In this document: positions 4,058-18,290 of the stretch, piece after piece
Layout of the letters: every line of letters begins with the position of its first letter
Position numbering within the stretch: the first letter of the stretch is position 1
From: Chitinophagaceae bacterium
GTDB taxonomy: Bacteria > Bacteroidota > Bacteroidia > Chitinophagales > Chitinophagaceae
DNA: 64,000 bases
Assembly: GCA_947374225.1 (NCBI GenBank)
Contig: CANCAY010000003.1
Location: 62,001 to 126,000 of the forward strand
Direction of reading: 5' to 3'
Notes under the pieces: generated by a model
The model's database searches: none
What the model saw: the letters and a program-made list of their open reading frames with translations, nothing else
What the model was told of the DNA's origin: nothing
Program-made: the position numbers and the translations under genes

Positions 4058-4119
4058 GAATTTGATTTTATGAAAATTACAAATTAAAAGGGAAATTTTA
4101 AAGAATTAGATGCCCTAAA

Positions 4120-4150
4120 CGATAAGAGGCCCTGCTTGGGCCTCTTATCG
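4120..4150 (-). terminator. Strong intrinsic terminator at the end of the phosphatase operon
   Basis: A perfect 13-bp stem (4120-4132 with 4138-4150, arms CGATAAGAGGCCC and GGGCCTCTTATCG) has a 5-nt loop TGCTT. On the minus strand it is followed only by a short TTTA tract. It lies 24 bases beyond the stop of the last phosphatase gene and before the M20 peptidase start, so it marks the 3' end of the 16.8-4.2 kb transcription unit. Confidence 0.75.
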
Positions 4151-4173
4151 TATATATAAATTATAACTTTCCT

Positions 4174-6072
4174 TTATTTTTTCTTAGTAACCACTAATGT
4201 GATATCATCTGGATTATTTTGCCCTTCCATCCAAACATCAACTGATTTTATTAAAGTATCAATAATCCCTTGAGCCGATAAATGGCAAGATGCTTGTATT
4301 AGATTTTTCAATTGGTCATAGTCATACATTTCGCCTTTTGAGTTGGGAGCTTCAGGTAAACCATCAGATAGTTGAACTAATACATCACCCGAATCAAAAG
4401 TTCTCGATAATTGCTCAAAGCCTTCGTTTTTCAATCCCCCTAAAGGCAAGCCATTATTCATAATTTCTTCCACCATGCTTGACTTTGCCTTATACAAATA
4501 AATAGGTGGCATAGCTGCAGAACTCATTGTTATCTCTTTGTCTTTGATTTCAACAATATTCAAACTCATTCTTAAAGTGCCTAGGTCTACTTTTTTAACA
4601 ACATTATTTAATTTCTGGAGGGTCAAAGCAGGAGACTCCGCATCTATGCCATTTAAGCCAGCCTTAGTAATAGATACCATCATACCCGAAGTAACTCCAT
4701 GTCCTGTCGCATCTCCGCAAACCGAATATAAAACCCCATTGTCCTGAGGAAAGAAGTCATAATAATCACCTCCAACTTCGGTGGAAGAACGGATAAATGT
4801 AGCAATATCTAAATCTGCTCTTGTAGGTAAGGACTTTGGTAGCATACTAACTTGTAAATCACGAGCCGCTTTTAATTCATTGTTTTTTCGGTCATCTTCA
4901 ATTTGCCTTACTCTATTTTTTTGTTTTTGTCTATTATATATACTCAAACTTACAAAGCCAATAACGAAGAATAAACTAAATCCAATGATTAATTTTTTTC
5001 GATTAGCCTCTTCTTCTTGTATTTGTTTTTCTCGTAGTTCTTCGTTAAGATTAATATTTTCAATTTCATTTACTTTCGACTTGTCTGTTAGAACGTCCTT
5101 TATTTCATTACTTAATAATAAATATTTATAAGCACTATCCACCTTGTTCATTTTTTTATAAATACTAGAAAGCAATTCGCTTGAGTTTAATAACGCTTCT
5201 GTATAGTTAACTTTTTGACCTAATTTGTAAGACAAGTTTGCATAACGTACTGCTGTATCTAAATGATTTAAATTATAATTTGCTCTGGCAATAATTTCAT
5301 ATGTCTGAGTAATATCTTTATCATAATTATTGGAGATGATAATTTGTCTTCCTTCTTCAATAATATCAATTGCTTTTTGATATTGCTTGGTTTTAATATA
5401 ACAATCCCCTATTACATAATAAGGATAGCCCCACTTTTTTGATAAAGGCAGGTTTTTATTTAGATCAACGGCTTTATATAAATATTTTAAAGCTGAATCA
5501 TATTCTTTAATTTGACTATAATATACTCCCAACATGCCAACTGGTGTCCATAATTCAGTTCCTGTAATTCCCTCTTCAAATATTTTTAATGTTTGTGGTG
5601 TAAGCATTTTTTTAACCTTTGAGTAACTTCCCAAACCGCTATAACAACCTAGTAGCTGCATATAAAGATTAGACTGAAAGATCGGATCCGTCAAATGAAC
5701 TGCCTCTGCCTCTTTTTTTGACAAATTCACATAATACAGCCCTAACGAATAATTACTCTTCATCATCATATAACTCATTGCCGTAGACAAATGATTCAAT
5801 GCCAATAGTATTTTTAAATCTAATAGTTTTGCAATTTTTTCGCTTTTGTTTAAATAAACTATTGCACTATCAGCATTGGAATAGAAATAAAAAGTAGCAA
5901 TTTTGTCTTGAAGAATTGCCTTTGTCTTACTGTCAGGCATAGCGTTAATTAGTCCTATGCTATCTTTAAATTCTTCTGTAGGTGTTGGATAAATATAATC
6001 GGAGAATTTTTCTTGAGCGAATAAGTTATTTGAAAATATTCCAAAAGCAATTATAATAATTAATTTTTTCAT
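4174..6072 (-). CDS. TPR-transmembrane-SpoIIE (PP2C) phosphatase, copy 3 of 3
   Basis: This 632-residue protein has a signal-like N terminus, TPR-like helical repeats (about 30-335), a coiled coil, one membrane segment (about 364-382, LIIGFSLFFVIGFVSLSIY), a second coiled coil and a C-terminal SpoIIE/RsbU-type phosphatase domain (about 402-632). The metal-binding motifs are intact: GGDYYDF (D436), GDATGHG (D454), LSDGLPEA (D570) and NPDDIT (D622/D623). The arrangement suggests periplasmic TPR sensing controlling a cytoplasmic phosphatase. The likely substrate is the phosphorylated STAS protein at 12742-13083 (inference). It follows the previous paralogue after only 2 bases. Confidence 0.88.
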   Translation of the reverse strand: MKKLIIIIAFGIFSNNLFAQEKFSDYIYPTPTEEFKDSIGLINAMPDSKTKAILQDKIATFYFYSNADSAIVYLNKSEKIAKLLDLKILLALNHLSTAMSYMMMKSNYSLGLYYVNLSKKEAEAVHLTDPIFQSNLYMQLLGCYSGLGSYSKVKKMLTPQTLKIFEEGITGTELWTPVGMLGVYYSQIKEYDSALKYLYKAVDLNKNLPLSKKWGYPYYVIGDCYIKTKQYQKAIDIIEEGRQIIISNNYDKDITQTYEIIARANYNLNHLDTAVRYANLSYKLGQKVNYTEALLNSSELLSSIYKKMNKVDSAYKYLLLSNEIKDVLTDKSKVNEIENINLNEELREKQIQEEEANRKKLIIGFSLFFVIGFVSLSIYNRQKQKNRVRQIEDDRKNNELKAARDLQVSMLPKSLPTRADLDIATFIRSSTEVGGDYYDFFPQDNGVLYSVCGDATGHGVTSGMMVSITKAGLNGIDAESPALTLQKLNNVVKKVDLGTLRMSLNIVEIKDKEITMSSAAMPPIYLYKAKSSMVEEIMNNGLPLGGLKNEGFEQLSRTFDSGDVLVQLSDGLPEAPNSKGEMYDYDQLKNLIQASCHLSAQGIIDTLIKSVDVWMEGQNNPDDITLVVTKKK

Positions 6073-6074
6073 GT

Positions 6075-8000
6075 TTATTTCTTTTTAGTAATAACCAATG
6101 TAATATCATCCGGATTGTTTTGACCTTCTAACCATACGTCAACTGATTTAATTAAAGTATCAATTATTTCTTGCGCAGTTAAATGGCAAGATGCTTGTAT
6201 TAGATTTTTCAATTGATCATAATCATACATTTCACCTTTTGAGTTGGGTGCTTCTGGTAAACCGTCTGATAATTGAACTAATACATCGCCTGATTCAAAA
6301 GCTCTAGTCTCTAGTACAAACTCTTCGTCTCTTAAACCTCCTAGTGGAAGCCCATTATTCATAAACTCTTCTACCTGTTTGGTTGCGGCCTTGTATAAAT
6401 AAATTGGAGGCATAGCCGCTGAACTTATAAATATCTCGTCATTGCTAATTTCTGCAATATTCATACTCATTCTTAATGTACCTAAGTCAATTCGCTTTAC
6501 AACCCCGTTTAGTTTTTGTAATATTTTATTAGGCTTAATGGGGCCAATACCGTTTAAGCCTGCTTTAGCAACTGACACCATCATACCAGAAGTTACACCA
6601 TGTCCGGTAGCATCTCCACATACGCTGTACAAATTACCTTCTGGTTGTGGGAAGAAATCATAATAGTCGCCACCCACTTCGGTAGAAGAGCGTATAAATG
6701 TAGCAATGTCTAAATCAGCTCTTTTTGGCAATTCCTTAGGCAACATACTTAATTGTAAATCGCGTGCTGCTTTTAATTCTCCGTTTTTGCGATCCTCTTC
6801 AATTTTTCTTAATCTATCTTTTTGTTTTCTTTTGCCGTTTAAATATATACCTATTGCAAAAAATATTAATGCTAAAGCAGTTAACATTAATATTTTTTGT
6901 TGCTTAGCTTTTTGCTCGGCTAATTCGGCTTGTTTAACCTCTTCATTAATAGCCATGTTCTGAGCATCGTTAGCCTTAATATTGTTAAATATTTGATCTC
7001 TTAATACTTCTGTAGCTTCAAGATATTTGAATGCACTGTCTTGAATATGATTCAATTTATATGCCTTATATAACAACTGATTAGCTTTTAATAAGCCTTC
7101 ATTAAATGTAAAATTCGAAGACATTATAACTACATTAGATGCATATTTTATAGAAGAGTCAATTTGATTTAAATTGAAATAATTTAAAGCAACTCCATAA
7201 TTTGCCTCTAGTATATCTTTATAATATAAATCTTTAATTGCATAAGGTATACTTATTTTATAAGCATTTATAGCCTCATTATATTTACCTTGTTTTGTTA
7301 ATATTTCGCCATATACAATATAAGGAGCACTCCATTTTTTTTCTGCAATTGTTGTATCAATAGAATAGCGAATAACTTCATTGTATTTTAGTGCTGTGTC
7401 ATATTCGCCTATCGCAATATAAAATTGTGAACTTAAATGATTCTGATTTAATCTTTGGTTTGTTTCAAATCCAACTTTGATATACTCATTGTTAAAAGCC
7501 GTTACCCCATTTTTGGAAGCAGTTTTATTGATATACTCAAGTGCTTTGTTATGATTGCCTAATTGGGCGTAACTCATGGCAATAGAATAATTGGAATAGT
7601 CTTGCCAAGCTTTTCTCCACCAACCTTCTTCTATTAAGTTATTATCAATATTTATTTTAACATACTTCGCGCATTGGAAAGAGTAATATAAGGCAAGTGG
7701 ATAATTACCTAATACATTCAAATAGACAGATGCTCCATCTCCATAAATTCTATTTAAAAAATTATAATACTTGTTGTCTAAAGAAAGCTTTTCTGCGATT
7801 TTATAATAATATATGGCAGAGTCCCCTTTGTAATAATTATAATAACTTCCAATATTCACATATGTGGCAATTTTAACTTTATAATCGTTGGTAGATTCAA
7901 TTTTTTTAAGGGAATCTTGTACATTTATTATTTCATTATTTAGCGCAAAGGAAGAAATTGAAATAGCAATAGCCAATAAGGTGATGCATGTTTTTTTCAT
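6075..8000 (-). CDS. TPR-transmembrane-SpoIIE (PP2C) phosphatase, copy 2 of 3
   Basis: The 641-residue paralogue has the same plan as its neighbours: signal peptide (to about residue 20), TPR-like repeats to about 340, a coiled coil with DAQNMAINEE, one membrane helix (ILMLTALALIFFAIGIYL), a coiled coil, then SpoIIE. Motifs GGDYYDF, GDATGHG, LSDGLPEA and NPDDIT are all present, so it should be active. The phosphatase half is nearly identical to copies 1 and 3, while the TPR half has diverged strongly. Bases 6181-6215 match 4280-4314 in copy 3 exactly over 35 bases, suggesting recent duplication or gene conversion. It starts 18 bases after copy 1 and is surely co-transcribed. Confidence 0.88.
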   Translation of the reverse strand: MKKTCITLLAIAISISSFALNNEIINVQDSLKKIESTNDYKVKIATYVNIGSYYNYYKGDSAIYYYKIAEKLSLDNKYYNFLNRIYGDGASVYLNVLGNYPLALYYSFQCAKYVKINIDNNLIEEGWWRKAWQDYSNYSIAMSYAQLGNHNKALEYINKTASKNGVTAFNNEYIKVGFETNQRLNQNHLSSQFYIAIGEYDTALKYNEVIRYSIDTTIAEKKWSAPYIVYGEILTKQGKYNEAINAYKISIPYAIKDLYYKDILEANYGVALNYFNLNQIDSSIKYASNVVIMSSNFTFNEGLLKANQLLYKAYKLNHIQDSAFKYLEATEVLRDQIFNNIKANDAQNMAINEEVKQAELAEQKAKQQKILMLTALALIFFAIGIYLNGKRKQKDRLRKIEEDRKNGELKAARDLQLSMLPKELPKRADLDIATFIRSSTEVGGDYYDFFPQPEGNLYSVCGDATGHGVTSGMMVSVAKAGLNGIGPIKPNKILQKLNGVVKRIDLGTLRMSMNIAEISNDEIFISSAAMPPIYLYKAATKQVEEFMNNGLPLGGLRDEEFVLETRAFESGDVLVQLSDGLPEAPNSKGEMYDYDQLKNLIQASCHLTAQEIIDTLIKSVDVWLEGQNNPDDITLVITKKK

Positions 8001-8018
8001 GAAAAATTTTTATATGTT

Positions 8019-9911
8019 TTATATCTTTTTAGTAATTACAATAGTGATATCATCGGGATTATGCTGTCCCTCCATCCACTGGTCAACTGATTTTATTAAT
8101 GTGTCAGTTATTTCTTGTGCTGTTAAATGACAGCTAACTAGAATTAAATTTCTTAATTGATCATAATCATATGGATCGCCTAGTGGGTTTGGCGCTTCTG
8201 GCAAACCGTCTGACAACTGAATTAATACATCTCCAGTTTCAAATGGCATCGTTTCTAAAACAAACTCCTCATCTCTTAAACCTCCTAGTGGCAAGCCATT
8301 GTTCATATATTCTTCTACAGTTTTAGTGGCAGATTTATATAAGTATATTGGTGGCATTGCTGAAGAACTTATATGAATTTCATGAGTATCTATTTCGGCA
8401 ATATTCATACTCATTCTTAAAGTGCCTAAGTCAACACGTTTTACTACACCATTTAATTTTTGTAAAATTTTATTGGGTTTTATTGGACCAATACCATTTA
8501 AGCCTGCCTTTGCAACAGATACCATCATTCCAGAAGTAACACCGTGGCCGGTTGCGTCACCGCATACACTAAATAACGTGCCATCTGGTTGCTGAAAAAA
8601 ATCATAATAGTCTCCTCCCACTTCCGTTGAAGATCGTATATAAGTAGCTATGTCTAAATCGGCTCTTTTAGGGTTTTGCTTTGGCAACATGCTTAATTGT
8701 AAATCACGCGCTGCTTGTAATTCGGCACTTTTTCTTTCATCTTCTATTTTACGAATTTTATTTTTTTGTTTTTGCTTTACAACAAAAAAACACCCTATCG
8801 CAAATAATACTAAAAAAAGGACAATCAAAAAATATATTTTCTGCTGTTTAGCACTTTGCTCAACCAACGCTCTCTGATTAAGTTCCTCGTTCATTGCCAT
8901 GTTTTGAGCATCATTGCTCTTGGAATCATTAAAGATTTGATCTCTTATATCATTGTATTTTTCTAAATACTTAAGGCAACTGTCCTGAGCTTTATTAAAT
9001 TTATAAATATCATACTTTATATGATAGGTCTTTTGCAAACCCTCGTTAAACGTAATAACTTTTGCATTTTCAATTATTTTATTACAATAAACTAAAGAAG
9101 AGTCAAACTTCTTTAAATCATAAAATGACTGTGCAATACCCAAATATGCTTGAGACTCGTCTTTTAAAACATTTCTAATAATACTATGTGGTACCGATTT
9201 TTTATAATAAATGATAGCCTCCTCCTGTTTATTTTCTTTTTGTAAAAGGATTGCTTTTGAAATATAAGGAATGCCCCATCTGTCTTTAAAACTATAACTT
9301 TCATTAATTGCTAATGCCAAATTATTATATTTTTTCGCATCCTCTATTTCATTGTTTCTGATATATGTTTCAGTAAATACACCGTAAATGGTCATTTTAT
9401 CTCCATTACTATATTTTGGTTCAATCTTTTTATATTCTTCTAATGCTTTAGTCATATACTCGTTCGACTTCACCTTATTTAATAAAAAAGCATACGTGTT
9501 TGCAACTGCATAGTTTGCATACAATGTTAAATCTTGCAATTCTTTATCAACTTTATTAATATTTCCTAGCGATTTTAAGGATTCAAATGCATAAGTTAAT
9601 GCAGCCGGATAATTACTTAGTGTATTAGAATTACAACTAGCCATATAAAAATATATTAATGGTAGTTTAGTACTAAGATTGTTTTCAATAGATAAAGCTT
9701 CTGCTTTTTTCAAAAAGATCATAGCAGAATCGCCTTTGAAATAAGCATAATTTATAGATATATGCATTAAGACTTCAACTTTTTCTTTTGCAGTATTTAA
9801 TTGCTCTAGTTTAATTAATGAATCTTTTATATTAATGTGCCTGTATTCTACCTGCGCTTTTGCATTAATAAAACAGATCAGATAAATAAAAAATAATAGT
9901 AGTTTTTTCAT
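8019..9911 (-). CDS. TPR-transmembrane-SpoIIE (PP2C) phosphatase, copy 1 of 3
   Basis: I start this gene at the ATG at 9911 (MKKLLLFFIYLICFINAKAQ, a good signal peptide, giving 630 residues). A longer frame from 9974 would add 21 charged residues and overlap the channel gene. Order of parts: signal peptide, TPR-like repeats, coiled coil with DAQNMAMNEE, membrane helix (IYFLIVLFLVLFAIGCFFVV), coiled coil, SpoIIE domain with GGDYYDF, GDATGHG, LSDGLPEA and NPDDIT. It is the first of three tandem sensor phosphatases behind the STAS/cyclase genes. Its ligand or signal is unknown; the proposed role, dephosphorylating the operon's STAS protein, is inferred from context. Confidence 0.87.
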   Translation of the reverse strand: MKKLLLFFIYLICFINAKAQVEYRHINIKDSLIKLEQLNTAKEKVEVLMHISINYAYFKGDSAMIFLKKAEALSIENNLSTKLPLIYFYMASCNSNTLSNYPAALTYAFESLKSLGNINKVDKELQDLTLYANYAVANTYAFLLNKVKSNEYMTKALEEYKKIEPKYSNGDKMTIYGVFTETYIRNNEIEDAKKYNNLALAINESYSFKDRWGIPYISKAILLQKENKQEEAIIYYKKSVPHSIIRNVLKDESQAYLGIAQSFYDLKKFDSSLVYCNKIIENAKVITFNEGLQKTYHIKYDIYKFNKAQDSCLKYLEKYNDIRDQIFNDSKSNDAQNMAMNEELNQRALVEQSAKQQKIYFLIVLFLVLFAIGCFFVVKQKQKNKIRKIEDERKSAELQAARDLQLSMLPKQNPKRADLDIATYIRSSTEVGGDYYDFFQQPDGTLFSVCGDATGHGVTSGMMVSVAKAGLNGIGPIKPNKILQKLNGVVKRVDLGTLRMSMNIAEIDTHEIHISSSAMPPIYLYKSATKTVEEYMNNGLPLGGLRDEEFVLETMPFETGDVLIQLSDGLPEAPNPLGDPYDYDQLRNLILVSCHLTAQEITDTLIKSVDQWMEGQHNPDDITIVITKKI

Positions 9912-9945
9912 AGCAAGCGTTAATTCTAGAAGGATTCGACGTTTT

Positions 9946-10623
9946 TTAGTGAGTAGCTTCTGGTTGTTTTTCATTAACCATTGCAGATTTACTTAGCCCA
10001 CTCATTCCATATTTTAAAACGAAGGGGATTAGTAATGGAACAAGTCTTCCTATAGTTGGATTTATAAAAACTAAACCTAATGAAATAAGAAAAATAACTG
10101 GGACCACTAATGTGAAATAAAAACCCAATAGCACTCTTTCTTTAGAAATTTTATGTGTAAAAATGTCCAAGTTGTGATTGGTTAAATAAAACCATAAAAT
10201 AGCATTCATAGTTGCTGTTAAACAAATATTAATAACATACACTGCATATGGCAAGTGCAACTCACTGTCGGCCGCATATTCGCCCAAAAGTCCAGAAGTG
10301 AAGGGTAGTAACACCACAGAAAAAAGAAATAATAAATTTAACCATATTAAACGTGTTGTATATTTTTCTACATACCCAAAAATTCTGTGATGAACAGACC
10401 AGTAATAACCAACAATACAAAAGCTAATTATAAAACCTAATAATTTCCAAGCCATTTCTTTAAGTGAGTCCCATAAAGCATGGTCTGTAGCATGTTCTAT
10501 TACGGGTACTTTAAATTCAATCACTAATAATGTAATTGCAATTGCAAATACTCCGTCGGTGAAGAATGAAATACGATCTAATTGAAAATGTAGCTTATTC
10601 GCGCTATGTCCTGCTTCTGCCAT
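9946..10623 (-). CDS. TMEM175-family (DUF1211) potassium channel
   Basis: The 225-residue polytopic membrane protein has the family signature near its N terminus (RISFFTDGVFAIAITLLVI), corresponding to the FSDxVFAIAxTLL pore-lining helix of bacterial TMEM175 K+ channels. About six hydrophobic segments follow, matching the usual size. It begins 5 bases after the cyclase stop and precedes the three phosphatase genes, so it sits inside the signalling operon. Family function is K+ conduction as a tetramer; a link to cyclic nucleotide or phosphatase signalling is only suggested by position. Confidence 0.85.
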   Translation of the reverse strand: MAEAGHSANKLHFQLDRISFFTDGVFAIAITLLVIEFKVPVIEHATDHALWDSLKEMAWKLLGFIISFCIVGYYWSVHHRIFGYVEKYTTRLIWLNLLFLFSVVLLPFTSGLLGEYAADSELHLPYAVYVINICLTATMNAILWFYLTNHNLDIFTHKISKERVLLGFYFTLVVPVIFLISLGLVFINPTIGRLVPLLIPFVLKYGMSGLSKSAMVNEKQPEATH

Positions 10624-10627
10624 AGTT

Positions 10628-12742
10628 CTAGGATTTTAATTTATTTTTAATAATCGCCAATTCATTGGCTTTTAGTTTATTTCTTGTTGCATTTGACGTT
10701 CTTGTAAAATAGGAATGCTTTGTTAAGAATTGATCTTGGATTTTTAACCAATCCGTTTCTGACACTTTTTTCTTTAGCCTAAGCTCTTGTAACAATAGGA
10801 GGCTATTCTCTTCATATCCGGTTCTTCCTAAATAATCCAGGTCGGCATCACAAATAATTTGCTCTAAAATGTTTTTAGGACTTTGTGGAATCTTTGTGGC
10901 CATTATCATCCCAGTAATTTTATTAATTTTTTTAGCAGGAAAGTCCATCGCATTTAGGACCGTGGTTGCATATTCAGCGCCTCTGGCTTCATGTCTTCCC
11001 GGCTCCCATATATAACCTACATCATGTAACCAGGCTGCCAATTTTAAATCAGCTATATCTTCTTTATTAATTTTTTCTTTTTTAGCAATTCTTTCTGACT
11101 GTACAACTACATCACGTATATGATGAATTGTGTGGTAAGTATAATCCTTTGGTAGATGATTTATCAAAAATGATTCTATCATACCAAATGCCACTTCATA
11201 ATTAAATGGAGGACGATCATAGAGCACTTCTTTGATTTCTATTGGCTTTACTTTACCCTTAACCTTAACAGGATTTAATTTTTTACTCTTTAGGTATTTG
11301 TTATGCTTTACGTGTTTCCAAACGGTATCTGAAACTATTATTTCGTCTGCTTTTGCAACAGAACATAAACGTGACGCCAAGTTTACAGAATCGCCAATTA
11401 CAGTAAAATTCATTTGTTGTCTTGAGCCAATATTTCCACTAATTACCTTACCTCTATTTATTCCAATGCCAATAGTAATAGGGAGTTTTGAATGTATTAT
11501 TCTTTGTTGATTAAATTCAATTAAACGCTCTTGCATCTCTATAGCAGTTAATACTGCGTTTTCTGTATCCTGGTCTGTAGAATTAGGCGCGCCATATATA
11601 ACCATTAGGGCGTCGCCAATGATTTTATCAAGTGTCCCATTATATTTAAAAATTATTTCAATCATTAAGTTGAAATAATCATTCAATGTTTCTACCACTT
11701 CATTTGGTGCCATAGTTTCTGACATAGAAGTAAAACCTCTGATATCCGAAAACAATATCGTAGCTTCTTGTTCTTGTCCCCCCAGGTTTAACATGTCATC
11801 ATTTTCTAAAAGCTGGTCGACAATTTGCTTGGATACATACTTTTTAAAAGTGGATTTTAATTTATCCAAATTAGATAAATCTTCCATGGCTACCACAGAG
11901 CCAATGGGCTCATTGATATCGTTCAACAATGGCGAAATAGAAATATTTACAGCCGTAGTTTTACCATTACAGTTCAATTGTACCTCTGTTTCAGAAACAG
12001 TATCTAGTTCTAATTCACATTTTGAGATAAGCTCGTTAATAATTTCATTGGACTCAAAAACATATTCATAATGATTGCCAATAACGGCTTCCCTCTCTAA
12101 ATTAATAATTGCTGCGGCTGCTCTGTTTACGTGATTAATTTCCCCCATCAAATTTGTGGTGAAAACGCCCGTAACAATAGACTGCATTACGTTATCATTA
12201 AAGGTTTTAGCCTCTTTGATACTTTCAATTAATTTAATATTATTATATGCAACTCCTGCCTGAGTGGCTATAGCGGAGAGCATATTGGTGTCAGATACTT
12301 CAAATGCTGAAATACCCGCTCTTGATTCTTTATCGAATAAAATAATCACCCCAACTAGATCTTTTTTATCTAGTAAGGGTGCTATTAGTCCATGTGTGCA
12401 ATTGGTTCTTGTTAAAAATGGATCATTTGAAATTTCAACATTAATCGCCTTGCGATTTTGATTCACTTCGTTAAAAAAACCTCTTTTTTTATTAAATATA
12501 ATGCCCTTCAAAGCTTCTACATCTATATTAAACTCTGCTTCTATTTGAAATAAGTCAGAATTATTATTCTGCATTAATATCATTCCAGAAGAAGCATTTA
12601 ATACTGCACAAGATTTAATTAAGATCTCTTCTAACAATACAGTTACATTTTCAAAGGAGCTTAGCTCGTTTGTAATGTCTAATAAAGTTTCTAATTCAAG
12701 ATACTTTAACTGTAACTCATTTATATTAAACTGCTTGCTCAT
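10628..12742 (-). CDS. GAF-PAS-class III adenylate cyclase-HD domain protein
   Basis: The 704-residue soluble protein contains a GAF domain (about 20-172), a PAS-like domain (about 178-292), a class III cyclase domain (about 325-505) and an HD phosphohydrolase-like domain (about 530-660). Cyclase residues are complete: metal Asp D333 (FSDIRGF) and D377 (KIIGDALM), adenine-selecting K373 and D451, and transition-state N454 and R458 (GDSVNLASR). This predicts cAMP synthesis. The HD part shows HHIRD, WLHDVGY (H573, D574) and CDADLDYLGR, so it may hydrolyse a nucleotide or phosphoester. Its start codon overlaps the STAS stop (TAATG), implying translational coupling and suggesting that STAS regulates it. 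Confidence 0.88.
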   Translation of the reverse strand: MSKQFNINELQLKYLELETLLDITNELSSFENVTVLLEEILIKSCAVLNASSGMILMQNNNSDLFQIEAEFNIDVEALKGIIFNKKRGFFNEVNQNRKAINVEISNDPFLTRTNCTHGLIAPLLDKKDLVGVIILFDKESRAGISAFEVSDTNMLSAIATQAGVAYNNIKLIESIKEAKTFNDNVMQSIVTGVFTTNLMGEINHVNRAAAAIINLEREAVIGNHYEYVFESNEIINELISKCELELDTVSETEVQLNCNGKTTAVNISISPLLNDINEPIGSVVAMEDLSNLDKLKSTFKKYVSKQIVDQLLENDDMLNLGGQEQEATILFSDIRGFTSMSETMAPNEVVETLNDYFNLMIEIIFKYNGTLDKIIGDALMVIYGAPNSTDQDTENAVLTAIEMQERLIEFNQQRIIHSKLPITIGIGINRGKVISGNIGSRQQMNFTVIGDSVNLASRLCSVAKADEIIVSDTVWKHVKHNKYLKSKKLNPVKVKGKVKPIEIKEVLYDRPPFNYEVAFGMIESFLINHLPKDYTYHTIHHIRDVVVQSERIAKKEKINKEDIADLKLAAWLHDVGYIWEPGRHEARGAEYATTVLNAMDFPAKKINKITGMIMATKIPQSPKNILEQIICDADLDYLGRTGYEENSLLLLQELRLKKKVSETDWLKIQDQFLTKHSYFTRTSNATRNKLKANELAIIKNKLKS

Positions 12743-13083
12743 TATAATCCACTAACTGCTTCTTCTTCTGTAGCAAATACAGTTGAATATTTTGTTAGCC
12801 CCATTATGTTAAAGGTTTTGGAAACTATTGGCGCTAAATTAAAGTAGCCAATTTTGCCATCTACTTCTTGTAATTTTTCAATGATTTCAATTAAGATAGA
12901 AACGCCAATACTGTTTACCACCTTAGTTGCCGCCATATTAATTAAAAATTTATTTTGACCGGATTTCATTTTATCATAACAAATTGCTGAGATAGCTTCT
13001 CCTCCTTCATTATTTAAATAACCATCGGTTTCAATAATTATAATTTGATTTGATTCTTTTGTGCTTTTTATAAATTCGCTCAT
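12742..13083 (-). CDS. STAS-domain anti-anti-sigma factor (RsbV/SpoIIAA-like)
   Basis: The 113-residue single STAS domain is the usual length for an anti-sigma antagonist. The segment KVVNSIGVSILIEII matches the conserved DSSG loop, placing the phosphorylatable serine at S58 (N57-S58-I59-G60). In known partner switches this serine is phosphorylated by an RsbW-type kinase and dephosphorylated by SpoIIE/RsbU phosphatases; both kinds of gene flank it here. The kinase gene is 22 bases upstream and the cyclase gene overlaps the stop by one base. The free STAS protein could bind the kinase or the cyclase; which one cannot be told from sequence. Confidence 0.87.
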   Translation of the reverse strand: MSEFIKSTKESNQIIIIETDGYLNNEGGEAISAICYDKMKSGQNKFLINMAATKVVNSIGVSILIEIIEKLQEVDGKIGYFNLAPIVSKTFNIMGLTKYSTVFATEEEAVSGL

Positions 13084-13105
13084 GATATGTAGTTTATTAG
13101 TTAAA

Positions 13106-13522
13106 TTATTTGTTGATATTTTTTTTCATAGTCACCGTAGTGCCTTCACTGTTAGATTCAAACTCCACCGAGTCCATTAATTCTTGAATTAATTGTAAAC
13201 CCCAGCCTCTTTTTCTTTCGTCTTTCCCTATTTTGTTCTCAATCTTAGGTATTTCTACTTTTGTCTTATCAAATCCAATACCTTGATCAATCACTTTTAC
13301 AACTAATGAATCCTCTTCAATTAGAAAATGAATAAATACATTGTTTTCTGCCTTAGAGTGCTCGAATGCATTAATACAAGCTTCAATTAAAGCCATACTA
13401 ATTTCACCTGCCTGGTCTTCTGTTAGGTGCATATGCCTAGCTATAACGTCGGCAGTTTGTGTTGCGATTAATTCCATGTTTGGAATGATTGGCAACTTTA
13501 GTTCTACGCTTGGTTGTTTCAT
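13106..13522 (-). CDS. RsbW/SpoIIAB-like serine kinase (HATPase_c anti-sigma factor)
   Basis: The 138-residue GHKL ATPase of the anti-sigma kinase family has an N-box EACINAFEHS (E47, N51), G1 box DQGIGFD (D79) and G2 box RGWGLQLI. It is the usual compact size, with no sensor domain. In the family it phosphorylates a STAS antagonist and sequesters a sigma factor. The adjacent downstream gene is that STAS protein, but no sigma factor gene lies nearby, so the partner released on switching is unknown. It follows the propeller-phosphatase gene after 72 bases. Confidence 0.87.
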   Translation of the reverse strand: MKQPSVELKLPIIPNMELIATQTADVIARHMHLTEDQAGEISMALIEACINAFEHSKAENNVFIHFLIEEDSLVVKVIDQGIGFDKTKVEIPKIENKIGKDERKRGWGLQLIQELMDSVEFESNSEGTTVTMKKNINK

Positions 13523-13594
13523 ATTGTTTGTTTTATTCTTATGAATTTTATTTAATTATAGATTTTATCTTATTTAGTTATTGAAATTGTATCC

Positions 13595-16500
13595 TTATTT
13601 ATGTTTAATAATTACAATAGTGATATCGTCTGGGTTATGTTGACCTGCTAACCAAGCATCCGCCTGGTTCATTAGTTCATCAATTAATGATTTTGCACTC
13701 ATTTGGCTATTTTCATTAATGATATTTTGAATGCGGGAGTAGTCAAATAATTCTCCATTTAAACTTGGTGCTTCTGCAAGGCCGTCAGAAATAATTGCTA
13801 AAATATCTCCTTCTTTAAATGTCGTAGTGATTTGATCAAAGTTTACTTCTTTAAAGCTTCCCAATGGAACACCCGAAATCATAATTTCCTCTGTTGTATT
13901 ACTTTCCGCTCTATAAACAAAATAAGGAGGCATACCTGCCGAACTTAATATTAATTCTGTCCCTTTTAAATAGGCGATATTTAAACTCATTCTTAATATA
14001 CCTAAATCTACTTTTTTAACAACAGTGTTAAGCGCTGAAAGCATTTTATGAGGCTCCATTTGAGGAAGTCCAATTAATCCAGCTTTAGTAATGGATACCA
14101 GCATTCCTGAAGGAGTTCCATGACCAGTAGCATCTCCGCATATTGCATAAAGAGAACCGTCAGCTTGTTGGAAGAAGTCGTAATAATCTCCACCTACTTC
14201 AGTTGAGGTTCTTAAATAGGTAGCGATGTCTAGCTGTTCGATTTGTGGATTATGTTTAGGAAGCAATCTTTCCTGTAAAGCTTTTGCTTCCGCTAATTCA
14301 CCATTTTTTCTTTCATCTTCTAATTTTTTTATTTGTTGTTTTTCTCTATATTTTGAGAAAGCATAAATAAAGCCGATTAGAAAAATTAAATATAATAAAT
14401 AGGCCCACCAGGTTCTCCATAATGGAGGATAAATAGTAATTGTCATTTTTGCACCTACTTCATTCCATACACCATCACTGTTGGCCGCTTTAACTCTAAA
14501 TATATATTTCCCTTCTCTTAAATTAGTATAAGAAGCAAATCGGCGTGTTCCTGAATAAATCCAGTCTTCATCATAACCTTCCATTTTGTATGCATACTGA
14601 TTTTTTAATGCATCTCTAAAATTAAATGCTAAAAATTCAAATGAAAGGTTGTTGCTTTTGTATGATAATTTAACAGGGGTTTCAACATTAGAGGTCTCGA
14701 CATACATGGTTGTGTCTCTTGATGTAAATTTTTGAATAATTAAAATAGGTGGTTTCGTATTTACTTTTATAGAATCCGGATGAAAATAATTAAGTCCCAA
14801 TAGTCCATTGAAAAATATTTCTCCGCTTGATGATTTAAATGAGCTGTTAGCATTGAACTCGTAATCCTGAACCCCTTCGGAAGGGCCAAAAGATCTAAAT
14901 TTATTATTATAAGGATTATACCTTATTAGTCCATAATTAGATGAGATCCACAATACATTGTCCCTGCCTGCATGAATATCATACAAGTATAAATTAGGAA
15001 CACCGTCCTTTAGGGTTAGAAATATCTTTGTTTGCTTTTCTAAATCAACTTTTATCAAACCATTACCATAGGTTGCAATAAATGCATATTTGCCATCAAC
15101 TACTTTTAAAGAAGGGCCAGAGTAATAATCTTCATTTACTTTAAATGAAATATTTTTTGTTAATGACTTAGCAATATTTGTTTTTTCATTTAACAAAAAA
15201 ATGCCGTCTTCATTTAATACATATAATTCAAATTCAGATTTTCTTTCTACTGCATAAATTCCTTTTTCTAGACCCTTTGGTAAATTCCAATACTTAAAAA
15301 CAAATTTTCCATTGGAATCTGCCAATACAACTGGCTTAATTCCTGATAAAATGGTTTCTTTATTATAGTTTATAAAATCACCCCCATTTACATTACTTGA
15401 TACATTTTGTAATTGCTCATTTGCAAATAATTTTTTATTAAACACCTCCTTGTTAAATGGTTTTTTATATAGTACCAGACCGCCGACAGAATTAGTATTT
15501 CCCGTGAATGCATACATATTTCCCCTATGATCTTCTACTAGCTTCCAAGTTTTTAGTCCTGTTCCATTCTCATTTCTTAAATATGATTTTTTCGATTTAT
15601 GCACACGATCAATAGCAAGTATGCCGCCGCCTGATACATATTCTCCCATCCAAAGCACCCCTTTTTTGTCTTCAACTATTCCCCAGGTTGCGCTAATGCC
15701 CATATTAAAATCGCTTGGAAAATTTTTATTCATTAATCCAAACATTCTTTTACCCGGATCGTATTTTAACAATCCCGAAATGGACGAACCAATCCAAATA
15801 TTATGGTCTTTGTCTTCAAGAATGTCGAAATAATTAGATTCGTTTATTCCATTGTCTTTCCCATTTTGAATATTTAAATGGCTGTTTTTATTATTGCTTA
15901 AATTAATTACATCAATTCCTTCTCCTCCAATTGTCAACCATAAGTAATTACTGGTCTTACTAAAATGTATTCCATTTACATTATTACTTGCTATAGAATT
16001 ATTATTTCCATCTTCGTGTTTAAATATGCGTACTACCTTAGTTTTGATATCATAGATATAAGCACCAAGCTTTGTCGCAACATAAATTTTATTATCAATT
16101 ACTTTTAAATCGTTTGGAATTATATTGAATAAGGAATCTGAGGAGTTAATGATTCTTGAAAATTCTTTTGTTTTAGTATCAAAATATTGAACTCCAATAT
16201 CAGTAGCTAGTACTAATTTCCCTGCTTCCGCTCCTCGAACATAGTTTAATCTCTCTTTTGCCCATTCACCCATTTTTGATGCTTCATGAACATTGAAATG
16301 TTCATATTTTTTAGTTTTTGGATCAAATGAAATTAGCCCAGTACCAACTGTGCCTAACCATACCTTAGCCGATACCGAATCAACAAATATGCTCCTCGCC
16401 GCCCCAATATAATAGGGAAGATTATTATTATTTTTAAATAGCGAATCTCTTATGGGGGTTGTAAAGTTTGTCCATTTGTCAGTTGCCCTTTCTAAAATTG

Positions 16501-16828
16501 AAAAATGTCCAAAATTGTCTACAGTCCAAATATTACCGTTTTTATCTTCTGTTACATCTAGTACCCAGCCACCAGAACGGGAGAATATATTTTTATTGTC
16601 ATGTGTATATTGCTTAAAAGTATAACCATCAAACCTATCCACTCCCGACTGATTCCCTACCCATAAGTATCCCACCCTGTCCTGATAAATACACAATGGG
16701 GAGCTCTGAGACATTCCGTCCTTAATTTGGTAATTATCAAATAAGAAGTCCGATAGAGACTGTGCGTTGACATTTAGGTTGGTAAAAATCATTATAAAAC
16801 CTATAAGACAGGTGCTTATATATTTCAT
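13595..16828 (-). CDS. Two-component-type propeller sensor (Reg_prop, Y_Y_Y) fused to SpoIIE phosphatase
   Basis: The 1077-residue protein has a signal peptide (about 1-22), a periplasmic propeller region of Reg_prop repeats (about 25-690; for example GYLWVGNQSGVDRFDG, HNIWIGSSISGLLKYD), a Y_Y_Y domain (about 725-795), one membrane helix (WWAYLLYLIFLIGFIYAF), a coiled coil and a C-terminal SpoIIE phosphatase (about 850-1077). Phosphatase motifs GGDYYDF, GDATGHG, ISDGLAEA and NPDDIT are intact. In most Bacteroidota proteins with this periplasmic half the output is a histidine kinase with an AraC regulator; here it is a PP2C phosphatase. It is the first gene of the operon, so its signal probably feeds the adjacent STAS protein. 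Confidence 0.87.
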   Translation of the reverse strand: MKYISTCLIGFIMIFTNLNVNAQSLSDFLFDNYQIKDGMSQSSPLCIYQDRVGYLWVGNQSGVDRFDGYTFKQYTHDNKNIFSRSGGWVLDVTEDKNGNIWTVDNFGHFSILERATDKWTNFTTPIRDSLFKNNNNLPYYIGAARSIFVDSVSAKVWLGTVGTGLISFDPKTKKYEHFNVHEASKMGEWAKERLNYVRGAEAGKLVLATDIGVQYFDTKTKEFSRIINSSDSLFNIIPNDLKVIDNKIYVATKLGAYIYDIKTKVVRIFKHEDGNNNSIASNNVNGIHFSKTSNYLWLTIGGEGIDVINLSNNKNSHLNIQNGKDNGINESNYFDILEDKDHNIWIGSSISGLLKYDPGKRMFGLMNKNFPSDFNMGISATWGIVEDKKGVLWMGEYVSGGGILAIDRVHKSKKSYLRNENGTGLKTWKLVEDHRGNMYAFTGNTNSVGGLVLYKKPFNKEVFNKKLFANEQLQNVSSNVNGGDFINYNKETILSGIKPVVLADSNGKFVFKYWNLPKGLEKGIYAVERKSEFELYVLNEDGIFLLNEKTNIAKSLTKNISFKVNEDYYSGPSLKVVDGKYAFIATYGNGLIKVDLEKQTKIFLTLKDGVPNLYLYDIHAGRDNVLWISSNYGLIRYNPYNNKFRSFGPSEGVQDYEFNANSSFKSSSGEIFFNGLLGLNYFHPDSIKVNTKPPILIIQKFTSRDTTMYVETSNVETPVKLSYKSNNLSFEFLAFNFRDALKNQYAYKMEGYDEDWIYSGTRRFASYTNLREGKYIFRVKAANSDGVWNEVGAKMTITIYPPLWRTWWAYLLYLIFLIGFIYAFSKYREKQQIKKLEDERKNGELAEAKALQERLLPKHNPQIEQLDIATYLRTSTEVGGDYYDFFQQADGSLYAICGDATGHGTPSGMLVSITKAGLIGLPQMEPHKMLSALNTVVKKVDLGILRMSLNIAYLKGTELILSSAGMPPYFVYRAESNTTEEIMISGVPLGSFKEVNFDQITTTFKEGDILAIISDGLAEAPSLNGELFDYSRIQNIINENSQMSAKSLIDELMNQADAWLAGQHNPDDITIVIIKHK

Positions 16829-17054: not shown

Positions 17055-18290
17055 TTGTCCTATCTTGAATCATATTCAATATACAACGACTGGTTTATGG
17101 CTATTTTATTCCCATTATTTGGGATTTTTACTTCATTTATACTTCTTTACTATTTAAGCTCCTTAAATAGATCTATTATATACTTGGCCTTATTCTTTTT
17201 GTGTTGCAACTTGGTGGTGATGGTATATTTTGGATTGCATTTCTCTAAAGACCTTTTTTGGGAGGGCGTATGTTTTGTAAATTGGCTCCCCCTTTCTTAT
17301 TTATTGGGACCGCTTCTGTTTTATTATGTTAAAACAACATTGACAGATAACAATAAATTGGGGAAATGGGACTGGTTACATTTATTGCCAGCCTTGCTTA
17401 CTATTATTAATTGCCTGCCTTTTACCACGCTGCCTTTTAATGAAAAAGCTAGAATTGCGCATGAAATTGTAAATGTTACTGAGAATTATACTTTAAACTT
17501 CTATTTTGTCTCCTTTGAGTTTATTCTCTTCTCCAGGTCGATACACTTGTTGATTTATTCCCTTTTGTCGATTGGCTATTTTTTCGGATTTAGTAGAAAG
17601 ACCTTTAAAGTCTACGGGAAGTTACCGTCTAATCATGCTATGATTAAAAGATGGATTTACCTGTTAAGTTTTATCCAGATCGTTATTGCTGTAAATAGTA
17701 TTGGTCATATGACCACTTTATATGGTTATCATTTCTCCTTATTGGGGATTCCATCAACTCAAATATTTTCAGAAAAATACTATTTTGAAATATGCGGCGG
17801 CGGGTTTTTTATGCAGAACATTTTTCTATTCTTGTTCCCTAAAATTCTTTACGGAAATATTTCATACAAGGTAGAGGAGGGAAAAGATAGTATTATTGAG
17901 GAGATAAAGTCTATCATTCCAAAGAAAATGAAAGAAGCTTCCGTAAATCCAGATTTTGAAAACATATTAAACGAGTACTTGACAGAAGCTCCATTTATTC
18001 AAAAGGACTTCTCGCTTTCTCAAATGTCATTTGACCTTAAAGTCCCAGAACGTATTATTTCTAATTACTTCAACAAAAACTTAAATATTAGTTTTAGTGA
18101 ATGGAGAAAAAATATTAGAATTGAATTTGTATGTAAGTTAATTGAAGAGGGTCGTGCCACAGATCTTACTATTGAAGCTATTTCTAGTAATGCAGGGTTT
18201 GCTTCTAGGTCAAAATTTATTGACGCTTTTAAAGAGCGAAAGGGAATTACCCCTTCCGCTTTTATTAAATCATTTGTAGTTGCTAATTAA
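17055..18290 (+). CDS. Multi-pass membrane protein with C-terminal AraC-type HTH domain
   Basis: The N-terminal two thirds carries about seven hydrophobic helices (for example AILFPLFGIFTSFILLYYL and a YLLGPLLFYYV segment). The last ~100 residues form an AraC/XylS HTH domain (FSLSQMSFDLKVPERIISNY; helix two GFASRSKFIDAFKE; GITPSAF). This is a membrane-anchored one-component regulator. The start is uncertain: TTG at 17055 or ATG at 17097; both leave the first membrane helix intact. It ends with a 4-base overlap on the convergent SnoaL-like lipoprotein gene. A matching inverted repeat precedes it and another follows the lipoprotein gene. The signal is unknown. Confidence 0.8.
   Translation: MSYLESYSIYNDWFMAILFPLFGIFTSFILLYYLSSLNRSIIYLALFFLCCNLVVMVYFGLHFSKDLFWEGVCFVNWLPLSYLLGPLLFYYVKTTLTDNNKLGKWDWLHLLPALLTIINCLPFTTLPFNEKARIAHEIVNVTENYTLNFYFVSFEFILFSRSIHLLIYSLLSIGYFFGFSRKTFKVYGKLPSNHAMIKRWIYLLSFIQIVIAVNSIGHMTTLYGYHFSLLGIPSTQIFSEKYYFEICGGGFFMQNIFLFLFPKILYGNISYKVEEGKDSIIEEIKSIIPKKMKEASVNPDFENILNEYLTEAPFIQKDFSLSQMSFDLKVPERIISNYFNKNLNISFSEWRKNIRIEFVCKLIEEGRATDLTIEAISSNAGFASRSKFIDAFKERKGITPSAFIKSFVVAN

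What the first reader, a model, noticed from the sequence alone, without database searches (positions are those of the whole stretch)
4120..16828. A 12.7-kb operon joining four sensor phosphatases, an RsbW kinase, a STAS switch and an adenylate cyclase
Seen: eight co-directional genes with gaps of -1 to 72 bases, ended by a 13-bp hairpin. They encode one propeller-SpoIIE and three TPR-SpoIIE membrane phosphatases, one RsbW-like kinase (N, G1 and G2 boxes intact), one STAS protein (Ser58), one GAF-PAS-cyclase-HD protein and a K+ channel. Known: in RsbU/V/W systems PP2C phosphatases dephosphorylate STAS, which frees a sigma factor from the kinase. Inferred: with no sigma gene here and a translationally coupled STAS-cyclase junction, the switch may control cAMP synthesis instead. 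Four parallel input phosphatases feeding one STAS protein would form an integrating signalling hub that I cannot match to a described system.
Basis: partly seen in the sequence, partly recalled or inferred. Interest (0 to 1): 0.78.

Follow-up and report, generated by a model that had tools for sequence, protein, structure and literature searches.

The report
Phosphatase-kinase switch joined to cAMP enzyme
A set of genes kept side by side in several related groups of bacteria joins a protein-phosphorylation switch, usually used to free transcription factors, to an enzyme predicted to make the messenger cAMP, which suggests that the switch controls that enzyme, as a similar switch does for another messenger in Pseudomonas.

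Summary
In detail: eight co-directional genes (16828 down to 4174) encode four sensor-SpoIIE phosphatases, an RsbW-like kinase, a STAS protein (Ser58), a GAF-PAS-class III cyclase-HD protein and a TMEM175-type protein, ended by a 14-bp hairpin without a T-run. In its own assembly (92% complete) the operon holds all four SpoIIE matches, the only strong RsbW match, the only class III cyclase match, and the one of two STAS proteins with the serine; one sigma factor with region 3 was found. The cyclase belongs to a clade (38-98% identity) in which RsbW and STAS lie upstream in 18 of 18 loci that can be judged for both, against 1 of 59 (STAS) and 0 of 59 (RsbW) for the next-best cyclases. Best reading: a SiaABCD-like partner switch whose output is an adenylate cyclase, possibly with a phosphodiesterase-like HD domain. 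STAS-cyclase contact, direction and product are inferred. Against it: 20 of 22 close RsbW relatives have no cyclase neighbour. Four phosphatases were seen only here and in one sister locus. New variant of a known kind.

The parts
13595..16828 (-). Membrane sensor phosphatase: propeller (Reg_prop, Y_Y_Y), one TM segment (about aa 806-824), SpoIIE/PP2C
   Evidence: Pfam SpoIIE E 3.6e-29, Y_Y_Y 9.4e-19, Reg_prop 1.4e-12; motifs and hydropathy
13106..13522 (-). RsbW-like serine kinase (HATPase_c_2)
   Evidence: Pfam HATPase_c_2 E 5e-25; PDB 6m36 RsbW E 1.3e-12; E47, N51, D79, G81, G83, G106, G108 the same in 18 of 18 cyclase-linked and 20 of 20 SpoIIE-linked relatives
12742..13083 (-). STAS switch protein, Ser58 in VNSIG
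   Evidence: Pfam STAS E 2.1e-9; aligns with the DSSG motif of a SpoIIAA structure; N57 and S58 in 19 of 19 cyclase-linked and 20 of 20 SpoIIE-linked relatives
10628..12742 (-). GAF-PAS-class III cyclase-HD protein, 704 aa; D333, K373, D377, T447, N454, R458 present
   Evidence: Pfam; residues in 20 of 20 clade rows; ATG overlaps the STAS stop as TAATG
10631..11230 (-). HD domain of the cyclase protein, fold shared by HD hydrolases and cyclic-nucleotide phosphodiesterases
   Evidence: AlphaFold2 pLDDT 93.7; bacterial HD hydrolases Z 15.9-17.5, PDE10A up to Z 16.8 and PDE7A 16.0; Foldseek ranks the hydrolases first (best E 2.6e-5) and phosphodiesterases of the PDE type only from E 0.014
9946..10623 (-). 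TMEM175-family (K+ channel) protein
   Evidence: Pfam TMEM175 E 6.5e-28; such a gene is in 6 of 21 clade loci, after the cyclase
8019..9974 (-). TPR-SpoIIE membrane phosphatase 3
   Evidence: Pfam SpoIIE E 5.5e-27; TM about aa 380-398
6075..8000 (-). TPR-SpoIIE membrane phosphatase 2
   Evidence: Pfam SpoIIE E 7.3e-28; TM about aa 370-388
4174..6072 (-). TPR-SpoIIE membrane phosphatase 1
   Evidence: Pfam SpoIIE E 3.2e-29; TM about aa 361-379
4119..4151 (-). 14-bp perfect hairpin after the last gene, no T-run

Best explanation
The operon is a self-contained partner switch whose output is cyclic-nucleotide (most likely cAMP) synthesis. RsbW phosphorylates STAS on Ser58; membrane PP2C phosphatases with TPR or propeller sensor parts remove the phosphate when their signals arrive. 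The phosphorylation state of STAS then sets the activity of the GAF-PAS-cyclase encoded next to it, most likely by unphosphorylated STAS binding and activating the cyclase as SiaC does to SiaD. In the HD-bearing members the fused HD domain probably hydrolyses the same nucleotide, or at least a nucleotide. Shown here: gene content, catalytic residues, conserved linkage. Inferred: the phosphorylation cycle, STAS-cyclase contact, direction of control, product, HD activity, sensor side of the membrane.
For: Own assembly: SpoIIE 4 matches, all in the operon; class III cyclase 1, here; STAS 2, the other without a serine at the site, by eye; RsbW-like 1 at E 9.5e-25, three weaker matches (E 2e-7 to 3e-4) not inspected; one region-3 sigma factor. 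Linkage: of 21 clade loci (L117-L137), RsbW and STAS lie upstream on the same strand in 18 of 18 that can be judged for both; STAS is directly before the cyclase in 17 of 19 that can be judged, with a phosphatase gene between in L125 and L126; two loci are cut inside the cyclase. Outside the clade: STAS in 1 of 59, RsbW in 0 of 59, and neither in 20 chosen same-family loci, 17 of which hold a cyclase. A more distant RsbW-STAS-cyclase set is in G428 (L113). RsbW, STAS and cyclase distances correlate, r 0.90-0.93 over 18 loci. A published parallel exists.
Against: No binding or activity data. Of the 22 close RsbW relatives found in other genomes, 20 have no cyclase beside them (19 have a SpoIIE gene in that place, L093 has SpoIIE genes on both sides), so the RsbW-STAS pair can work without one. 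Two other genomes placed in the window's genus have no RsbW match. STAS and cyclase are parted by another gene in L125 and L126 and by about 140 bases in L124 and L131. Clade-specific residues are dense in the PAS-cyclase linker (9 of 32 against 34 of 468, p 0.0007), but not significantly among invariant positions (9 of 18 against 34 of 111, p 0.11), and relatedness is uncorrected. Distance correlation is also expected from plain co-inheritance. L113 is a long branch in both trees. The cyclase has its own GAF and PAS domains. The assembly is 92% complete.
Confidence: 0.55

Rival explanations
1. Classical partner exchange: the kinase RsbW, not STAS, holds the cyclase inactive, and unphosphorylated STAS draws RsbW away.
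For: RsbW and STAS are both present in 18 of 18 clade loci that can be judged; RsbW-type kinases bind their targets in the sigma systems (established knowledge, recalled).
Against: The gene next to the cyclase, sharing a base with it in the window and in L117-L122, is STAS; published cyclase examples (SiaC-SiaD, HsbA-HsbD) use the switch protein.
Confidence: 0.2
2. The switch regulates a sigma factor (the primary one, as reported for Chlamydia in an abstract seen in the listing, PMC4552016) or another unlinked target, and the cyclase is a co-transcribed parallel output with its own GAF/PAS input.
For: 20 of 22 close RsbW-STAS pairs lack a cyclase neighbour; a primary-type sigma factor exists; the cyclase has its own sensor domains.
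Against: Clade-wide linkage of RsbW and STAS to this cyclase; no second region-3 sigma factor found in the assembly.
Confidence: 0.17
3. The cyclase is upstream: its product or its GAF/PAS domains tune the kinase or phosphatases.
For: In 19 of 22 relatives the same gene position holds a SpoIIE phosphatase, an upstream component.
Against: No cyclic-nucleotide-binding domain among the Pfam hits (E up to 0.01) of the kinase, STAS or phosphatases.
Confidence: 0.08

Closest known systems
SiaABCD of Pseudomonas aeruginosa (PMC8457831: abstract and introduction read; PMC7647112: abstract read)
   Same: PP2C phosphatase, kinase, a switch protein phosphorylated by the kinase, and a nucleotide cyclase; phosphorylation of the switch protein prevents its binding to and activation of the cyclase
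   Different: SiaC is a DUF1987 protein phosphorylated on Thr68 and SiaD is a diguanylate cyclase; here a Pfam STAS protein (Ser58) and a class III GAF-PAS-cyclase, with HD domain and TMEM175 gene in part of the clade and up to four phosphatases
HsbA-HsbD of P. aeruginosa (PMC5085249: abstract read) and BgrV-BgrR of Sinorhizobium meliloti (seen only as cited in the PMC8457831 introduction)
   Same: A STAS/anti-anti-sigma protein is tied to a cyclase
   Different: Diguanylate cyclases, not class III
RsbU/V/W and SpoIIE/AA/AB partner switches
   Same: PP2C, STAS and HATPase kinase trio; the STAS serine aligns with the DSSG motif of SpoIIAA
   Different: No sigma gene in the operon; a cyclase gene sits next to STAS
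CyaB1/CyaB-type class III cyclases
   Same: Cyclase domain closest to PDB 6fht (bacteriophytochrome-adenylate cyclase), 2w01 and 3r5g CyaB; Lys/Thr pair (as an adenylate cyclase mark: recalled)
   Different: Linked to RsbW-STAS; C-terminal HD domain

Membership tests
Partner-switching module (RsbU/V/W type) | HATPase_c_2 serine kinase with N, G1 and G2 boxes | tested here: met
   kinase activity not tested
Partner-switching module (RsbU/V/W type) | STAS protein with a phosphorylatable Ser/Thr at the known site | tested here: met
   Ser58 aligned to the SpoIIAA DSSG motif, S58 in 19 of 19 and 20 of 20 relatives; phosphorylation itself not tested
Partner-switching module (RsbU/V/W type) | PP2C/SpoIIE phosphatase with metal-binding Asp motifs | tested here: met
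   Four of four in the window
Sigma-controlling RsbU/V/W system | Cognate SigB/SigF-type sigma factor | tested here: inconclusive
   One region-3 sigma factor (285 aa) in a 92% complete assembly, none in the operon; the primary sigma factor as target cannot be excluded
SiaABCD | SiaD-type GGDEF diguanylate cyclase | tested here: not met
   The cyclase is PF00211 class III
SiaABCD | SiaC-type DUF1987 switch protein | tested here: not met
   Pfam gives STAS PF01740 only
SiaABCD-like logic | Switch protein binds and activates the cyclase | not testable with these tools
   Linkage only
Class III adenylate cyclase | Two metal Asp, Lys/Thr purine pair, Asn and Arg transition-state residues | tested here: met
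   D333, D377, K373, T447, N454, R458 in 20 of 20 clade rows; D, D, K, T also in 59 of 59 outgroup rows, N in 56, R in 58; roles recalled, product not tested
Cyclic-nucleotide phosphodiesterase (PDEase_I) | PDEase_I sequence profile | tested here: not met
   Pfam gives HD and HD-CE, not PDEase_I, at E up to 0.01
Cyclic-nucleotide phosphodiesterase (PDEase_I) | PDE catalytic fold and metal-binding His/Asp | tested here: inconclusive
   PDE10A up to Z 16.8 and PDE7A 16.0, close to tied with bacterial HD hydrolases such as 2pq7 and YpgQ; Foldseek E 0.014 or worse for PDEs; H537, H541, H573, D574, D632 invariant in 13 of 13

The most novel reading that the evidence does not exclude
A cAMP set-point hub: several membrane sensor phosphatases converge on one STAS switch that controls a single protein which both makes (class III cyclase) and destroys (HD phosphodiesterase) cAMP, in a genome where this protein is the only class III cyclase found, with a potassium channel as a local effector. 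No paper that I saw describes a partner switch acting on a class III cyclase.
Probability: 0.2. Interest if true: 0.78.

Novelty: new variant of a known kind. Interest (0 to 1): 0.6.

Why it matters
If true, partner switching, known for sigma factors and for diguanylate cyclases, also drives class III cyclases, which extends the rule 'a STAS-like switch sets a cyclase' to a second messenger family. It would give a concrete route from membrane sensors to cAMP in Bacteroidota, with a small gene set that can be tested in E. coli. It also supplies a natural comparison: related RsbW-STAS pairs linked either to a cyclase or to a SpoIIE phosphatase.

Tried and rejected
Chance clustering or artefact: rejected, because the order is kept in loci whose cyclases are only 38-54% identical to the window's. 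An ordinary sigma switch: not rejected, kept as a rival. The excess of clade-specific residues in the PAS-cyclase linker was first taken as a sign of a binding site. Over all positions it is 9 of 32 against 34 of 468 (p 0.0007) for the clade and 5 of 32 against 17 of 468 (p 0.009) for its L127-L136 part, while four outgroup sets had no such linker residue; but among invariant positions p is 0.11 and 0.31, and the four outgroup sets had almost no specific residues anywhere (0 to 4), so they are weak controls. I do not rely on it. A structural test of STAS-cyclase docking by a read-through single chain was prepared but dropped: MAFFT laid the GAF part of the cyclase rows over the STAS part, and the structure tool's description promises no contacts between domains. 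The cyclase model has pTM 0.46 and serves only for secondary structure; no fold search was made with it. A second, independent origin of the STAS-cyclase link in L113 is suggested by the RsbW+STAS tree but not by the cyclase tree, where L113 is a very long branch at the border of the clade; it shares 16 of 43 clade-specific states, against at most 11 in an outgroup row. I leave it open. The HD fold searches did not separate a cAMP phosphodiesterase from other HD hydrolases; by sequence the best solved structure is 2pq7, a predicted HD hydrolase, E 0.0026. Literature: eight searches listed no paper whose title or abstract start describes a STAS or RsbW switch acting on an adenylate cyclase. Several listings were capped (20 of 49, 25 of 27, 15 of 1,598, 10 of 308, 20 of 16,454). 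Passage searches of PMC8256260 and PMC11418112 found no 'cyclase' in their main texts. The library holds open-licence PMC papers only.
Full report
OBSERVATION. The eight genes are present as described. In transcription order (minus strand): propeller-SpoIIE (13595-16828), RsbW-like kinase (13106-13522), STAS (12742-13083), GAF-PAS-cyclase-HD (10628-12742), TMEM175-family protein (9946-10623) and three TPR-SpoIIE proteins (8019-9974, 6075-8000, 4174-6072). Spacings are 72, 22, -1, 4, -29, 18 and 2 bases; the -29 rests on the first ATG, and starting at the internal Met before the signal-peptide-like stretch would give +34 (inference). STAS and cyclase overlap as TAATG. The closing hairpin is 14 bp (4119-4151), folds at -26.1 kcal/mol with z -6.2, and is followed by TTAGGGCATC, so it is not a standard intrinsic terminator. 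Each phosphatase has a hydropathy peak just before its PP2C domain (the third TPR protein has two overlapping ones at its N-terminus as well), and the four PP2C motifs searched for.

OWN GENOME. The assembly is 2.46 Mb, 83 contigs, 92.4% complete. SpoIIE: 4 matches, all in this operon. HATPase_c_2: 4 matches; the operon's is strong (E 9.5e-25, frame of 149 aa); the other three (E 2e-7 to 3e-4, frames of 274-671 aa) were not inspected. STAS: 2 matches; the second (L009) reads NWDHAII where the operon protein reads VNSIGV, by eye. Class III cyclase: 1 match. Sigma region 3: 1 match, a 285-aa protein that looks like a primary sigma factor. Cyclic-nucleotide-binding domain: 3 matches, of which two look like receiver-cNMP-HTH proteins and one like a Crp/Fnr regulator, by eye. 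The absences carry the incompleteness of the assembly.

NEIGHBOURHOOD OF THE KINASE. A search of 395 genomes of the phylum with the RsbW protein gave 23 genomes with E of 1.3e-19 or better (own included), then a gap to 5e-13. I fetched the other 22 (L092-L113) and three weaker places (L114-L116). A STAS gene lies next to RsbW in 22 of 22. The gene after STAS is a GAF-PAS-cyclase in 2 of 22 (L092, L113), a SpoIIE protein (open frames of 533-614 aa) in 19 of 22, and L093 has SpoIIE genes on both sides. In 14 of those 19 the SpoIIE frame also matches the window's GAF-PAS part at E 0.01 or better, mostly weakly. Two other genomes placed in the window's genus had no RsbW match. So the RsbW-STAS pair is wider than the cyclase link.

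NEIGHBOURHOOD OF THE CYCLASE. Of 147 same-family genomes, 96 have a match to the cyclase protein, many of them to its HD part alone. In 20 loci that I chose from these (17 with a cyclase hit, 3 with HD alone) no STAS, RsbW or SpoIIE match was found (E up to 0.001, one query each), while the HD domain was a separate gene beside a cyclase on the same strand in 11 and fused in 1 (the choice favoured loci with both). L117-L137 (21 loci, 38-98% identity) stand apart from L138-L196 (59 loci, 30-38%, lower E-value rank). In the first group RsbW and STAS lie upstream on the same strand in 18 of 18 loci that can be judged for both; the contig of L120 starts at STAS, and L130 and L137 are cut inside the cyclase. 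STAS lies directly before the cyclase in 17 of 19; in L125 and L126 a propeller-SpoIIE lies between. In the window and L117-L122 the STAS stop and the cyclase ATG share a base; in L124 and L131 about 140 bases part them. SpoIIE genes are held in 17 of the 18; the exception, L123, has only 0.8 kb before RsbW and 2.9 kb after its TMEM175 gene. L120 holds no SpoIIE gene in 6.7 kb after its TMEM175 gene. In the second group STAS is beside the cyclase in 1 of 59 (L146, Blastocatellia, no RsbW hit) and RsbW in 0 of 59 (three queries each, E up to 0.01); several of these contigs are short. Organisms are named as in the records, mostly MAGs and single cells.

TREES. RsbW+STAS, 40 rows (L092 dropped as duplicate; L120, L130 and L137 lack RsbW; L114-L116 dropped): the window and 18 clade rows form one group (89/83, not starred), L093 lies next to it, and L113 falls with the SpoIIE-linked rows (100/100); the cyclase label needs two changes, forced by starred branches, but L113 and L093 are long branches flagged by the program. 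Cyclase, 51 rows (21 linked; 30 of the 59 outgroup rows): the linked rows are on one side of a branch (100/99), with L113 a very long branch (3.88) at the border; the eight HD-less rows form a clade (100/100). Pairwise distances of RsbW, STAS and cyclase correlate at 0.90-0.93 over 18 loci, which shows co-inheritance and no more.

RESIDUES. STAS N57-S58-I59-G60 is kept in 19 of 19 cyclase-linked rows; N57, S58 and G60 also in 20 of 20 SpoIIE-linked rows. S58 aligns with the first serine of the DSSG motif of a SpoIIAA structure, which by recall is the phosphorylated residue. RsbW box residues are the same in 18 of 18 and 20 of 20. The cyclase has D333, K373, D377, T447, N454 and R458 in 20 of 20 clade rows; the first four are also in 59 of 59 outgroup rows. 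A Lys/Thr pair is, by recall, an adenylate cyclase mark of the CyaB1 type, hence cAMP is the inferred product; one of the nearest solved cyclases, 2w01, is by recall a guanylate cyclase, so similarity alone does not settle it. The linker test is told under Tried and rejected.

HD DOMAIN. It is fused to the cyclase in 13 of 21 clade loci (in L119 the contig ends inside it) and not found on the cyclase in 8 (L127-L129, L132-L136); L128 has a separate HD gene upstream of RsbW. The AlphaFold2 model is good (pLDDT 93.7). Foldseek's best matches are bacterial HD hydrolases (E 2.6e-5 to 9e-4), with cyclic-nucleotide phosphodiesterases of the PDE type only from E 0.014. In the second look, hydrolases (2pq7 Z 17.5, 3b57 17.4, YpgQ 16.5) and phosphodiesterases (PDE10A up to 16.8, PDE7A 16.0; about 190 residues aligned of 200) are close to tied; the tool warns that helical folds reach middling Z by common arrangement and that a shared fold shows no function. 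Pfam gives HD, not PDEase_I. A phosphodiesterase role is plausible from the fusion to a cyclase, and not shown.

MECHANISM. The best-supported reading is sensor phosphatases and RsbW setting the phosphate on STAS Ser58, and STAS setting the cyclase. The closest experimental precedent is SiaABCD, where SiaA and SiaB balance SiaC phosphorylation (PMC7647112 abstract) and phosphorylation prevents SiaC from binding and activating the diguanylate cyclase SiaD (PMC8457831 abstract and introduction); that introduction also cites BgrV-BgrR and HsbA-HsbD. Each step in the window is inferred from homology and linkage. Rivals are RsbW holding the cyclase, a sigma or other target with the cyclase in parallel, and the cyclase acting upstream.

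NOVELTY AND VERDICT. Eight literature searches listed no report of such a switch on an adenylate cyclase; I saw listings (several capped) and abstract starts, the abstracts named above, one introduction, and ran passage searches in two further papers. The kind of system is known and the output enzyme is new to it: a new variant. The 'four parallel inputs' feature was seen only in the window and L117, although several contigs end too early to tell.

Noticed in passing
L094-L112: A conserved RsbW-STAS-SpoIIE gene set, in most loci with further propeller-SpoIIE genes nearby, in 19 of 22 phylum relatives, with no output gene among the families searched for.
   Followed up: partly
L009 1474-1872: The second STAS protein of the own genome lacks a serine at the phosphorylation site (NWDHAII, by eye).
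   Followed up: no
L042-L047, L049-L051, L053, L060: A separate HD-domain gene next to a class III cyclase gene on the same strand in 11 of 20 chosen same-family loci; in L048, as in the window, the two are in one frame.
   Followed up: partly
window 9946-10623; L117, L118, L120, L123, L130, L137: TMEM175-family gene directly after the cyclase in 6 of 21 clade loci.
   Followed up: partly
L146 1803-3919: Blastocatellia contig with a STAS gene (DSSG) before a GAF-PAS-cyclase and no RsbW hit: possibly a separate case of the same pairing.
   Followed up: partly
L138 4229-9707: Riflebacteria contig with a SpoIIE gene just upstream of a GAF-PAS-cyclase, without STAS or RsbW hits.
   Followed up: no
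L198 1177-2235, L199 1033-2085: Two proteins that look like receiver-cNMP-binding-HTH fusions, possible cyclic-nucleotide readers in the own genome.
   Followed up: no
window 17055-18290: AraC-family regulator gene divergent from the operon.
   Followed up: no
L129, L132-L136: Open frames of these clade cyclases run about 137-157 codons upstream of the part that matches the window's GAF domain; in L129 and L136 no ATG lies in that extension.
   Followed up: no
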